Assembly: GCA_021803845.1 (NCBI GenBank)
Contig: JAJZLA010000108.1
Location: 1-6,240, forward strand
Length of the DNA stretch: 6,240 nt
Direction of reading: 5' to 3'
Source: a bacterium
GTDB taxonomy: Bacteria > SZUA-79 > Acidulodesulfobacterales > Acidulodesulfobacteraceae
Shown: one piece after another, positions 1,806-6,240 of the stretch
How positions within the stretch are numbered: position 1 is the first letter of the stretch
Layout: the number at the start of each line of letters is the position of its first letter
Made by a program: the position numbers and the translations under genes
The notes under the pieces: generated by a model
Databases searched by the model: none
What the model was told of the DNA's origin: nothing
The model's input: only the letters and a program-made list of their open reading frames with translations

Positions 1806-3140
1806 TTATTTAGAAAAAGAAAAATCGTCGTAAGTCCGTTGTCCTTTTTCTTCTGCCTGTTCTGCCTGTTCCGGTTCGGCAAGTTCCCGTAATTCTATTT
1901 CCTGTGTTATGGGTAAAAATGCGGGCTGAGCAGGGGTTCTTTGAATTAATTTAAGTTGCGATTTAGCCATATATTGCATAGTTTTGAAATAAAATTCAAG
2001 ATCGCCGAGTTCTGTTAATTGAACAGGAAGGACAAGCCTTTCATTCCGACGATTATTTGATATATTTACTCTGTCCCATGCCTCGTCCATAGATAGCGAT
2101 GAGCTTGTGGAGTAATCTTCGACTTCGGATTCTCCGAGAGCGCGGCTCAAATACTCTGCGGTGTTAGGTTCGAGTATGCGCAGAAGGTATAAAGTATTCA
2201 TCGCATTAATGAGCGTTGTTTTTGCGTCCGTTCCGTATTTTTTATCTATCAGACCGAAATCCTGAGTTCCGGCTACGATAGAAGCTCCGGCAGAGCGTCC
2301 CAACGTTAAGATAGACAAAAGGGAAGGAATGGCCGATACATTTTGAAATTCGTCAAGCACCATAAATACCCTGCGACTTAAATCCTGACCTAATCCAAGT
2401 AAAATATTAAGCAAAAAATCGACGAAGAAGCGCGCAAGCGGACTTACGATATTGCTATATTTTTGCGAAGCGTTTAGGAATATAAGACCTTTGCCGTTTT
2501 TAATCCATTCTTCGATGGAAAAATCGCCGTCCATTGTGCTTAGAAGCTCTATCGCACGGCTCCAAGTATGAGCGGTAGCAAGAACGCCGTCGGCCTGCGC
2601 CGAGCGTTTGTCGCCCAGAGCCGAAAGGGCGTCCACTGCATTTACTCTTGAGAGCATTTCTTTTATTTTATCGTAGTCTTCAGTAAAAATTGTATCGGAA
2701 ATATCTTTATTGCTTTTCATGCCGCTTGCAAGCGCAAAGTAAATAAGCCCTTTTAGAACGTTTTTGCCCGCCTGTAAAAAGAATTTTTCGTTTTCGGATT
2801 GCGCAGATAAGTCGTTAATTAGGCTGTTAGATATGACTTCCGCATCTGCCCGCAAAAGATTAAAATTGATGTCGTTTGCAATGCTCCATTTTATCGACCT
2901 TTGGTCAAGCGGGTTTAAAATCATATCGACGCCCGGACGGTAAAAAAAACTTGTAAATTCACCCTTGAGGTCGAGTATTACCGCTCTGTCGCCTCTTTTG
3001 ATTATCTGGTCGATATACTGCGCTATTAATTGGCTTTTTCCCGAACCGGTCGCTCCCACGACGAGAGCGTGCTTTGTTTCTGTCGAAGGCGGCAGACTCA
3101 ATACGCCGTCTATCGTTTTTATTTCAATTCTTTTTTTCAT
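1806..3140 (-). CDS. traD: Type IV coupling protein ATPase (TraD/TrwB/VirD4 family), lacking its own membrane anchor
   Basis: This 444-aa ATPase would recruit the relaxase-DNA complex and pump the strand into the secretion channel at the inner membrane. Walker A is GATGSGKS (29-36). The family motif DLKGEF (57-62) is followed by LNPLD (75-79). An all-alpha insert probably occupies about 100-215. Walker B is VFMVLDEF (258-265), and GTQDF (291-295) matches the conserved glutamine motif of TraD/TrwB. The tail is acidic and Glu/Gln-rich with a short 9-nt tandem repeat (1852-1869, EQAEQA) and ends DDFSFSK; in F-plasmid TraD the C-terminal tail contacts the relaxosome, so a docking role here is plausible. 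Unlike TrwB or TraD, it has no N-terminal membrane segments: the protein begins 28 residues before Walker A. The anchor appears to be the gene just upstream, 2 bp away in another frame. Start is supported by AAGGAG at 3149-3154. Confidence 0.95.
   Translation of the reverse strand: MKKRIEIKTIDGVLSLPPSTETKHALVVGATGSGKSQLIAQYIDQIIKRGDRAVILDLKGEFTSFFYRPGVDMILNPLDQRSIKWSIANDINFNLLRADAEVISNSLINDLSAQSENEKFFLQAGKNVLKGLIYFALASGMKSNKDISDTIFTEDYDKIKEMLSRVNAVDALSALGDKRSAQADGVLATAHTWSRAIELLSTMDGDFSIEEWIKNGKGLIFLNASQKYSNIVSPLARFFVDFLLNILLGLGQDLSRRVFMVLDEFQNVSAIPSLLSILTLGRSAGASIVAGTQDFGLIDKKYGTDAKTTLINAMNTLYLLRILEPNTAEYLSRALGESEVEDYSTSSSLSMDEAWDRVNISNNRRNERLVLPVQLTELGDLEFYFKTMQYMAKSQLKLIQRTPAQPAFLPITQEIELRELAEPEQAEQAEEKGQRTYDDFSFSK
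3109..3134 (-). repeat. 26-bp sequence with an exact inverted copy at 6215-6240
   Basis: These bases, within codons 3-11 of the coupling-protein ATPase gene (encoding about RIEIKTI), occur again without mismatch in opposite orientation at the right end of the window. An exact 26-bp match in about 6 kb cannot reasonably be chance. The copy here is in its natural coding context, with ribosome binding site and ATG just upstream, so this is the likely original. Confidence 0.97.
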
Positions 3141-3142
3141 GA

Positions 3143-3595
3143 TTAATTCTCCTTGTTTAGTTGTTTTATTAATTTCTTCATGGGCAGTATCGCAATCCCG
3201 CGAATGTATTTTTTCTCGTAGGCTTTATTAGCAGACCATTTTAGATACCAGAAGCTCGCCGGAAAAATAAACATAAACAGCAGAATAGACCAATACAAAG
3301 AATCTATAACCGCATGCAATAAACCTAACAGGTATTGAACGAGATAATATCGTCCCGGCATGAACAATACGCCCGTTCCGAAATATTTAACGACCGCAAT
3401 TATTGCTTGTATAGCCGTGAACAATTTGCCGTTCCAAAGAAGCGGAATAGCGATACTTAAAGCCGCCGAAAAACCTAATATCATAATAAAAACACGGAAT
3501 TTTAGGAAAATTTGAGTTAAAAAGTTGTTGTAGTAAGTGTGATAACCCAATTGCCTGCTTGGGTCTTGCGGTTTGATAGGATTTTTAAAATACAT
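3143..3595 (-). CDS. Membrane protein, probable detached N-terminal anchor of the coupling protein
   Basis: This 150-aa protein has hydrophobic segments at about 35-54 and 99-118 and a weaker one near 60-75. It ends with a basic linker 'KKYIRGIAILPMKKLIKQLNKEN'. In intact TraD/TraG-type coupling proteins, two membrane helices near the N-terminus are followed by an RG-containing linker (xxRGxxLxxxxxLxxxL) and then the ATPase domain. Here the linker ends in a stop (3143-3145), and the ATPase starts 2 bp later in a different frame with its own AAGGAG, placed in the last codons of this gene. The anchor would therefore assemble with the ATPase non-covalently at the inner membrane. The start has AGAGGTG about 6 bp upstream. 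This is the first gene of the leftward operon. Family assignment rests on topology, linker and position, not on strong sequence identity; an unrelated small membrane protein is the alternative. Confidence 0.8.
   Translation of the reverse strand: MYFKNPIKPQDPSRQLGYHTYYNNFLTQIFLKFRVFIMILGFSAALSIAIPLLWNGKLFTAIQAIIAVVKYFGTGVLFMPGRYYLVQYLLGLLHAVIDSLYWSILLFMFIFPASFWYLKWSANKAYEKKYIRGIAILPMKKLIKQLNKEN
3149..3154 (-). promoter_or_regulatory. Ribosome binding site of the coupling-protein ATPase
   Basis: AAGGAG lies 8 bp before the ATG at 3140, inside the last codons of the preceding gene. It shows that the ATPase starts independently and is probably translationally coupled to the anchor gene, which argues against a simple frameshift having split one coupling-protein gene. 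Confidence 0.85.
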
Positions 3596-3730: not shown

Positions 3731-3791
3731 CGCATTGTTTTTTTACGGTCTAAACCCGCTTGTCGGGTTTGGGACGTAAAAAAACAATGCG
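3731..3791. repeat. 61-nt extended hairpin with 17-bp perfect arms
   Basis: The outer arms 3731-3747 and 3775-3791 (CGCATTG, seven T, ACG, and its complement) pair perfectly over 17 bp. Inside them, one G/A mismatch and three pairs (two G-T) lead to a second perfect 7-bp stem (AAACCCG / CGGGTTT, 3752-3758 and 3764-3770) closed by the loop CTTGT. About 27 of 28 positions pair. Such a cruciform-capable structure between the coupling-protein and relaxase operons is what an oriT inverted repeat would look like. Alternatives are a bidirectional terminator or attenuator (T7 or A7 lies in the arms, not after the stem) and a non-autonomous palindromic element. Confidence 0.85.
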
Positions 3792-3954: not shown

Positions 3955-4845
3955 ATGAAAAAATTAATCGGTAAAATTCTTATCGTATCGGCATTTATTT
4001 TAGGTATGTTTTTAGCGTTTGTCGATAGCTATGCATTTGGAATGTCTGCCGGAACAGCGACTAATTCTGATTTAAGTTTGGCTAAGAAACAGGCATTGGA
4101 GCAGAAAAGAGAACTCGCAAAAACATATCAGAGGACTAAAACTATAAGCGTATTTGCATTGTATTTGCCGTATCTGGCGGAAGTGGAAAATACGATACCC
4201 TTTTTCGAAAAATGCGGAGTAATAACTAATCCGCCCGTTCTTAAAAATTTTATCGGAAACGTCAATACGAGATACGGAGTTGACCTATACGCGCTTGAAT
4301 ATTTAAAGCAGGAAGGGGAAATAGGTGGGCGCAATTCGATGTTGAAGCAAAAGAAAATAAAGAAGTATATGTTTTGCGTAGCCGCATACGGACTTATTCT
4401 TGCTCAGGCATTCAAGGATTTCGGTTCAGGTTTGTCCGGCGGCGGAGCGGCGTTAAGTTCGGAAACCTACGGAATAACGTCAAACGGCTTTTATAATTTA
4501 GTTGGTTCTTCTTTGGCGGACGCAATTCAACATCAGGACAGGCGTCTAAGAACGGAATACCGGCATATTAAAAATGAAATTAAAAATCATAAATGCGTTT
4601 TATACAACAAAAACATAAAATGCGGCGGCGTTTATTTAAATATTGAAAGTTCGCCGAAACTCACTTGGGGCGGTCTCGACTGGTATAATCCGCAAGAGGA
4701 CTTTGCCGGTAACAACGACGTAATTACTATCGGATACAACAAATCAAGGACTTTCGGGCAGACGCAGACTAAGGACAGGGCTATAAATTGGGTTGATAAT
4801 AACGTAAATAATATATCGTCGGATTTAATTAACGGATTATTCTAA
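3955..4845 (+). CDS. Exported protein of unknown function, first gene of the relaxase operon
   Basis: This 296-aa protein starts with a signal peptide: MKK, a hydrophobic core at about 8-23, and a likely cleavage site after SYA (residue 27). The mature N-terminus is helical and charged (residues 38-62), which may form a short coiled coil. A mildly hydrophobic stretch near 138-152 (YMFCVAAYGLILAQA) precedes a Gly/Ser-rich segment (157-169). Cysteines are at 87, 141, 214 and 223; the last two (C-x8-C) bracket a small loop before the Gly/Trp-rich 'GGVYLNIESS...WGGLDWYN', suggesting a disulfide-stabilised periplasmic domain. I recognise no family. Its place as first gene before two small proteins and the relaxase suggests a function in transfer at the envelope, for example surface or entry exclusion or channel assembly, but none of these can be shown here. 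Confidence 0.85.
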   Translation: MKKLIGKILIVSAFILGMFLAFVDSYAFGMSAGTATNSDLSLAKKQALEQKRELAKTYQRTKTISVFALYLPYLAEVENTIPFFEKCGVITNPPVLKNFIGNVNTRYGVDLYALEYLKQEGEIGGRNSMLKQKKIKKYMFCVAAYGLILAQAFKDFGSGLSGGGAALSSETYGITSNGFYNLVGSSLADAIQHQDRRLRTEYRHIKNEIKNHKCVLYNKNIKCGGVYLNIESSPKLTWGGLDWYNPQEDFAGNNDVITIGYNKSRTFGQTQTKDRAINWVDNNVNNISSDLINGLF

Positions 4846-4871: not shown

Positions 4872-5174
4872 ATGAAATCGACTTGGGCAAAAATCATTCT
4901 TTTCGCAATACCGTTTCTGGCTTTAATTTTTTTCTATATTGCTCACCAACAGCATAAGCAGAAACAAACTATTAAGAAGCAGAATTTAGCTTTTTCCCGC
5001 TCTTGGAACGAATTTAATTATCAGTTTACCGGAAAAAAGGTTTATAAGCAAAGAGCCGATAAGCGTTCCAAAGAACTTAACAATATTAGAAAAAAAGAAG
5101 AAGCTAAGAAAAAAGAAACCGTAAAAGAGTTTAACAAAAAGTTTAACTCTGATATGGCGCAATTTAAAGGTTAA
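4872..5174 (+). CDS. Small lysine-rich membrane-anchored protein, unknown
   Basis: This 100-aa protein has one N-terminal hydrophobic segment at about 7-24, followed by a highly charged, Lys-rich, probably helical tail (blocks such as 'NIRKKEEAKKKETVKEF'). The segment could be a membrane anchor or an uncleaved signal; no clear cleavage site follows. The basic tail could bind nucleic acid or acidic partners if it faces the cytoplasm, or pack as a coiled coil. GGAG at 4861-4864 lies 7 bp before the ATG, and the gap to the preceding gene is 26 bp, so they are in one operon. I recognise no family. Confidence 0.8.
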   Translation: MKSTWAKIILFAIPFLALIFFYIAHQQHKQKQTIKKQNLAFSRSWNEFNYQFTGKKVYKQRADKRSKELNNIRKKEEAKKKETVKEFNKKFNSDMAQFKG

Positions 5175-5388: not shown

Positions 5389-6225
5389 ATGATAAGCTCC
5401 GGCAAACAGTATCAAAATTTCGAATACTACGCAAAAGACCCTGCATATACGATTGAGGACGGACGGTTTATAGGCGGACTTGCCGCCGAACTCGGCTTTA
5501 CGGAAATCAACGCGGATAACATGGCAAAGTTGCAAGCGGGACAGGACGCAACGGGCAAACAGATAGTAGAAACGGCGGGTAAGGACGGAGTAGAACATAA
5601 TCCCGGAAAAGATTATACTTTTTCGATTGATAAACCTATATCTATTTTGCGTTTTTCCGAATCCACGCCGGAGCATATCAAACAAGCGATTGACGAAGCT
5701 ATGAGAGCCGCCGCTAACAAATTTGTAGAAACGGCGGTAAAAGAAGGTATGGTTACGTGGCGGGAACATTCAGGCGATAATATGATACATCACAAGATAG
5801 AAAACACCGACCAGATAACCGCCCATTCTTTTTTGCAATCGACAAGCCGAAACAACGACCCGGATTTGCATATCCATATCGCTTTTATGAATATGGCGAA
5901 AGTCGGAGACGGCTATAAAACGATTAAATTCGACGGAATCCACAAAAAAGACGCAAAGGCTTTTTTAGACCAAACCGCTAAAAATGAATTTTATCAGGTT
6001 TTAGAACAAAAGCTCGGCAAAAACTTATCAAACGTTATAGAAAAAAATAAGGTTGACGGAACTTTAAGCGTCGCAGGTATAGGAAAAGAATTAATCGAGC
6101 AGTTTTCAAGCCGGCAAAAAGAAATTAAAGAAGCCTTAGTTGAACTTAAAGAAAAATATCCGAATGCAACTGACGGAGAATTAACGCAAATGGCAAATAA
6201 GGCGACACGTCAGGAAAAGAATTGA
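5389..6225 (+). CDS. traI: MobF-family (TrwC/TraI) relaxase domain, helicase part missing
   Basis: MobF relaxases nick oriT through a tyrosine, stay covalently bound to the 5' end and are exported with the strand. Motifs in order: tyrosines Y8, Y13, Y14 and Y20, where 'YYAKD' (13-17) matches the second tyrosine pair of TrwC; D75 in 'DYTFSIDKPIS', matching the catalytic-base motif DxTFSxPKS; 'FLQSTSRNNDPDLHIH' (148-163), matching FxHxTSRxxDPxLHxH, with H161 and H163 present but Q150 where the first metal-ligand His is expected. 'FSSRQKEI' (239-246) and 'ATRQEK' (272-277) mark the end of the relaxase region. Family members are usually about 900-1700 aa with a C-terminal RecD-like helicase; this one is 278 aa. 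The frame ends inside 26 bp that duplicate the start of the coupling-protein gene, so it is probably truncated. The N-terminus is about 8-10 residues shorter than usual. It may keep nicking activity, but transfer would need a helicase from elsewhere. Confidence 0.92.
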   Translation: MISSGKQYQNFEYYAKDPAYTIEDGRFIGGLAAELGFTEINADNMAKLQAGQDATGKQIVETAGKDGVEHNPGKDYTFSIDKPISILRFSESTPEHIKQAIDEAMRAAANKFVETAVKEGMVTWREHSGDNMIHHKIENTDQITAHSFLQSTSRNNDPDLHIHIAFMNMAKVGDGYKTIKFDGIHKKDAKAFLDQTAKNEFYQVLEQKLGKNLSNVIEKNKVDGTLSVAGIGKELIEQFSSRQKEIKEALVELKEKYPNATDGELTQMANKATRQEKN

Positions 6226-6240
6226 AATAAAAACGATAGA
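6215..6240 (+). repeat. Inverted 26-bp copy of the coupling-protein gene start, at the window edge
   Basis: These 26 bases are the exact reverse complement of 3109-3134. Homology begins after CAGG at 6214 (the bases before it no longer match) and continues to the last base of the window, so the full copy may be longer. The relaxase stop TGA (6223-6225) is supplied by this copied sequence. The join lies in an A/G-rich AAAAGA, compatible with microhomology. Confidence 0.97.

What the first reader, a model, noticed from the sequence alone, without database searches (positions are those of the whole stretch)
6205..6240. Relaxase gene runs into an inverted copy of the coupling-protein gene
The last 26 bases are an exact inverted copy of 3109-3134 (codons 3-11 of the coupling-protein ATPase). 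The relaxase reads normally up to 'ATRQEK', a point where family members continue, and then stops inside the copied sequence. The natural gene was therefore joined to a piece of traD, by inversion or duplication at microhomology (AAAAGA), by a programmed DNA inversion, or by a false assembly join at a contig end.
Basis: partly seen in the sequence, partly recalled or inferred. Interest (0 to 1): 0.75.

Follow-up and report, generated by a model that had tools for sequence, protein, structure and literature searches.

The report
Chimeric join at a fragment's end
The last 26 bases of this plasmid-like DNA fragment look like a false join between two of its genes, made during DNA preparation or sequencing, because an identical copy of the interrupted gene product runs on without the join elsewhere; it is most likely an artefact rather than biology.

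Summary
In detail: 6215-6240 is an exact inverted copy of 3109-3134 (codons 3-11 of the coupling-protein ATPase gene), beyond chance at an edge. The relaxase stops at TGA 6223-6225, inside the copy. The interpretation can be narrowed. Database protein P0001 is identical to the window relaxase over 278 of 278 residues and continues for 102 more; 8 of 9 other aligned relaxases also continue past this point. The donor gene is intact in the window itself. So both parent genes exist whole, and the junction is seen only in the window's last 26 bases. An inverted join of segments 3 kb apart at up to 9 shared bases is the geometry of an amplification or library chimera. No recombinase or extended site supports programmed inversion. 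Best reading: a chimeric read carried into a contig end. A real rearrangement in part of the population cannot be excluded without reads, and it is not proved that the window edge is a contig edge. Low interest; the element is otherwise a MobF conjugation module with an apparently two-gene coupling protein.

The parts
6215..6240 (+). 26-nt exact inverted copy of 3109-3134; carries the relaxase's premature TGA (6223-6225)
3109..3134 (-). source of the copy: codons 3-11 of the coupling-protein ATPase gene
6215..6223 (+). zone in which the breakpoint must lie: up to 9 nt (AAAAGAATT) that can belong to both native relaxase and traD
   Evidence: native continuation KN-LDF in P0001; exact length depends on unseen codons
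5389..6225 (+). MobF/TrwC relaxase, first 278 residues; the native protein continues
   Evidence: Pfam TrwC 5.4e-39; P0001 100% identical over 278 aa and longer; NCBIfam MobF 134.6 bits vs cut-off 100 for P0001
1806..3140 (-). TraD/TrwB-type coupling-protein ATPase, 444 aa, intact, without N-terminal membrane segment
   Evidence: Pfam TrwB_AAD_bind 1.9e-81; hydropathy
3143..3595 (-). 150-aa protein with several membrane-like segments, 2 nt upstream of the ATPase gene; membrane anchor of the coupling protein (inferred)
   Evidence: no Pfam match

Best explanation
The window's right edge is the end of an assembled contig whose last bases come from a chimeric molecule or read. During amplification or library preparation a 3' end copying the relaxase gene was displaced, annealed through up to 9 shared bases (AAAAGAATT) to the opposite strand of the nearby traD gene and was extended, giving relaxase codons 1-278 joined to traD sense sequence from codon 3 on. 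The assembler followed that read and stopped on re-entering traD sequence that it already held. Shown: the copy, its geometry, an uninterrupted identical relaxase protein, an intact traD in the window. Inferred: that the window edge is a contig edge, and the strand-switching step.
For: P0001 is identical over 278 of 278 residues and continues in frame to 380 aa. Of 9 other aligned relaxases 8 continue past the junction; the 2 of them scanned with Pfam (L015, Blastomonas) carry helicase-type domains further on. traD is intact in the window and its protein P0003 stands for a 90%-identity cluster of 6 sequences on 3 contigs, the longest 21,106 bases. Geometry: inverted, 3,080 nt between arms. In E. 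coli MDA 406 of 475 mapped chimeras were inverted, 337 of the 406 joined segments under 10 kb apart, and 93.5% of inverted joins under 10 kb had 2 or more complementary bases, up to 21 (PMC1855051, passages). Another MDA study found overlaps peaking at 6 nt, mostly 5-8 (PMC4595205, passages). At random inverted joins of this window 9 or more shared bases occur with frequency 0.0001, 7 or more with 0.001. The copy runs exactly to the window edge. 26 equals k-1 for k=27, a k-min used in a published metagenome co-assembly (PMC10491686, passage): a coincidence that fits, no more.
Against: No reads, coverage or sample data: use of amplification is unknown. It is not proved that the window is a whole contig; the 21,106-base contig of cluster P0003 could be the window's own source, in which case the join would lie inside a long contig. 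The MDA distance peak is 250-300 nt in one study and inverted chimeras fall off with distance in the other, so 3 kb is in range but not typical. P0001 comes from one short contig (6,122 bases), may be cut at its own end, and its DNA could not be read; only 122 of 2,711 plasmid records matching it align over 80% or more of it, so its tail is weakly conserved. Real microhomology-mediated rearrangements have the same anatomy.
Confidence: 0.8

Rival explanations
1. A real, non-programmed inversion or inverted duplication at microhomology in part of the cell population (template switching or end joining), which truncates the relaxase and gives a transfer-defective plasmid form.
For: Same junction anatomy; an assembly of a mixture of both forms would also end where the rearranged form re-enters traD; the uninterrupted relaxase P0001 would be the other form. 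If the window is a slice of a longer contig (a 21,106-base contig exists for cluster P0003) this reading gains.
Against: Seen only in the window's last 26 bases; an uninterrupted identical relaxase exists; the truncated product has no apparent use (inference).
Confidence: 0.15
2. Programmed DNA inversion that switches the relaxase between a long and a short form.
For: Inverted arms; in L015 relaxase and coupling-protein genes lie on one strand, in the window on opposite strands, so their relative orientation differs between elements.
Against: No recombinase among the nine window ORFs scanned (DNA outside the window unseen); the shared sequence that would serve as a site is at most 9 nt, lies inside two coding sequences, and 69 inverted exact 9-mer matches have one arm in 5389-6214 anyway.
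Confidence: 0.02
3. Pure assembler mistake without any chimeric read: two unitigs joined through a shared word.
For: Position at an edge.
Against: Native relaxase and traD share at most 9 nt at the join, shorter than the words (21 or more, recalled) of short-read assemblers, so at least one read should have crossed the junction.
Confidence: 0.03

Closest known systems
Inverted chimeras of multiple displacement amplification (PMC1855051; PMC4595205; passages seen)
   Same: Inverted orientation, segments within 10 kb, join at a few complementary bases
   Different: Whether this sample was amplified is unknown; 3 kb is beyond the 250-300 nt distance peak of one study; up to 9 shared nt is slightly above its usual 5-8
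MobF/TrwC conjugative relaxases (TrwC of R388, TraI of F)
   Same: TrwC domain; P0001's best solved relative is TrwC 1omh, E 1.1e-14, residues 12-282; P0001 passes the NCBIfam MobF cut-off
   Different: The window protein stops at TrwC profile position 266 of 286, P0001 reaches 278; neither shows a helicase domain
TraD/TrwB coupling proteins
   Same: TrwB_AAD_bind and TraG-D_C domains
   Different: ATPase lacks an N-terminal membrane segment; membrane-like segments lie in a separate upstream gene. Comparable in principle to pIP501 TraJ, for which TraI is the likely membrane anchor (PMC13037476, passages)

Membership tests
Amplification/library chimera | Two segments of one molecule joined in inverted orientation within 10 kb | tested here: met
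   inverted, 3,080 nt between arms
Amplification/library chimera | Short complementary run at the join | tested here: met
   up to 9 nt, an upper value because P0001's DNA is unseen; random expectation
Amplification/library chimera | Uninterrupted parent sequences exist | tested here: met
   relaxase: P0001, protein level; traD: intact in the window
Amplification/library chimera | Join carried by few reads and not reproduced between libraries | not testable with these tools
   no reads; no genome held for the window
Programmed DNA inversion | Recombinase gene nearby | tested here: not met
   none among nine ORFs of the window; DNA beyond the window unseen
Programmed DNA inversion | Extended inverted-repeat sites at both breakpoints in the native sequence | tested here: not met
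   native KN-LDF (P0001) cannot match traD past 6223; at most 9 nt shared
MobF relaxase | TrwC/MobF domain above curated cut-off | tested here: met
   134.9 bits vs 25 (window); MobF 134.6 vs 100 (P0001)
MobF relaxase | C-terminal helicase domain | tested here: inconclusive
   not in the window or in P0001's 380 aa; present in L015 and the Blastomonas protein

The most novel reading that the evidence does not exclude
A real, recurrent inversion at AAAAGAATT in a fraction of plasmid copies that reversibly cuts the relaxase to a helicase-less form, so that transfer is switched off in some cells.
Probability: 0.03. Interest if true: 0.5.

Novelty: not a real feature. Interest (0 to 1): 0.07.

Why it matters
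Mainly as a caution: a short inverted self-copy at a contig edge can create a false truncated gene or false fusion in a metagenome protein catalogue, and comparison with an uninterrupted identical protein is a quick way to recognise it. If the join were real and recurrent, it would be a switch for plasmid transfer.

Tried and rejected
Close DNA relatives were not found. In viral contigs: no relaxase relative (32 stretches matched a pattern, none confirmed), no exact match to a 29-nt relaxase pattern or a 29-nt traD pattern, no TraD relative with the profile of 14 proteins (27 stretches, none confirmed). No TraD match in the phage collection. In plasmids all matches to relaxase and TraD were under 60% identity (one search stopped at 5,000 records). 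The one scan of genome contigs with the TraD profile gave 20 loci with 26-36% identity in the best segment. A second protein search from P0001 found only P0001 and P0002; relaxases outside 209-665 aa could not be found by it, nor those outside 153-486 aa.

Left edge of the window: shares at most 9 nt in inverted form with the rest, nothing notable. The P0002 tail had no match among plasmids. PADLOC gave only one weak hit. The k=27 idea is kept as a coincidence that fits; assemblies that end at larger k would not leave a 26-nt overlap. The randomisations were first-order Markov sequences, not exact dinucleotide shuffles.

Changed on re-checking: confidence in the chimera lowered from 0.83 to 0.80 and the real-rearrangement rival raised from 0.12 to 0.15, because the 21,106-base contig might be the window's own source.

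Full report
Observation. The window holds a divergent conjugation module: on the - strand a coupling-protein ATPase gene (1806-3140) preceded by a membrane-protein gene (3143-3595); on the + strand three ORFs (296, 100 and 65 aa from the starts used here) and a MobF/TrwC relaxase beginning at 5389. The last 26 bases, 6215-6240, are the exact reverse complement of 3109-3134, codons 3-11 of the ATPase gene. In 200 first-order Markov randomisations the right edge never recurred in inverted form over more than 13 nt. The relaxase reads ...Q-E-K-N and stops at TGA 6223-6225.

The gene naturally continues. A search of about 5.8 billion proteins with the 278-residue relaxase returned 2 proteins among 815 candidates. 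P0001 (380 aa; cluster of 3 members; 1 contig of 6,122 bases) is identical over all 278 residues and then reads LDFTKEELEDKLTPAASAV.... Its match to the TrwC profile extends from position 266 (window) to 278 of 286. P0002 (352 aa, 88% identical over the part aligned) leaves the family near residue 247 in an unrelated tail and so says nothing about this position. I aligned the window relaxase with 10 others: P0001, P0002, the relaxases of the 7 of 20 genome loci in which tblastn found one at E up to 0.01, and a Blastomonas MobF. Nine of the 10 (P0001 and 8 of the other 9) continue past the junction; the exception is P0002. The best-scoring genomic relative, L015 of a Deltaproteobacteria MAG (28% identity over 297 aligned columns), has 1,106 residues with AAA_30 and other helicase-type domains, as has the 927-residue Blastomonas protein. 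P0001 shows no such domain and may be cut at its own contig end; that is inference. Its tail is weakly conserved: 122 of 2,711 matching plasmid records align over at least 80% of it.

The donor gene is intact in the window itself. Its protein, P0003, stands for a 90%-identity cluster of 6 sequences on 3 contigs, the longest 21,106 bases. Which of these is the window's own source is not told; if it is the longest, the window would be a slice and the join would lie inside a contig.

Nature of the join. Native relaxase and traD can agree over at most AAAAGAATT (6215-6223), because the native protein goes on with L-D-F where traD has TGA AAT AAA. At random inverted joins of this window 9 or more shared bases occur with frequency 0.0001 and 7 or more with 0.001, so the join was probably guided by the shared bases. 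A pure assembler join through 9 bases is unlikely, so a chimeric read is needed. Published MDA chimeras match this anatomy: 406 of 475 inverted, 337 of those 406 under 10 kb apart, with complementary runs of up to 21 bases (PMC1855051, passages seen); overlaps of mostly 5-8 nt in another data set, where, however, the distance peak is 250-300 nt (PMC4595205, passages seen). Whether this sample was amplified is unknown; other library steps can give similar chimeras (general knowledge; one 2026 abstract in the listing, PMC13141652, reports inverted-repeat chimeras from nanopore ligation libraries).

Why at the edge. The copy runs to the last base of the window, and the left edge also cuts an ORF, as expected if the window is a whole contig whose right end follows a chimeric read into sequence that the assembly already holds. 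A 26-nt overlap is what a de Bruijn graph with k=27 leaves at such a node, and k-min 27 was used in a metagenome co-assembly (PMC10491686, passage seen). This is consistent, not proof.

Rivals. A real microhomology-mediated rearrangement in some molecules has the same junction and cannot be excluded without reads. A programmed inversion lacks a recombinase in the window (nine ORFs) and extended sites. Under each of these readings the 278-residue protein is not the native full-length relaxase.

Verdict. Observation confirmed; interpretation narrowed to a chimeric join, most likely at a contig end; interest low.

Noticed in passing
1806-3140 and 3143-3595 (- strand): The coupling protein seems split into two adjacent genes: a 444-aa ATPase without N-terminal membrane segment and a 150-aa protein with several membrane-like segments 2 nt upstream. 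None of the 14 proteins P0003 (identical to the window's) to P0016 has a membrane-like segment before residue 230, whereas 5 of the 6 next ones (P0017-P0022) have one within the first 50 residues (hydropathy only). Similarity of the 150-aa protein to L015 TraD was not significant (best E 0.58).
   Followed up: partly
P0002 (database protein, contig of 3,700 bases): A second relaxase of this family (88% identical) departs near residue 247 into an unrelated 105-residue tail with no match among plasmids; possibly another chimeric contig or an insertion.
   Followed up: partly
3955-4845 and 4872-5174 (+ strand): Two proteins with a hydrophobic N-terminus have distant counterparts near the L015 conjugation genes (E 2.7e-9 and 6.5e-13 in a five-protein comparison) and no Pfam match above cut-off; probably conjugation accessory proteins.
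   Followed up: partly
3731-3791: Inverted repeat with 28-nt arms, 89% complementary, 5 nt apart, between the divergent gene groups; possibly an origin-of-transfer or terminator structure.
   Followed up: no
L015 1679-7590: In this relative the relaxase and coupling-protein genes lie on the same strand, whereas in the window they are divergent.
   Followed up: no
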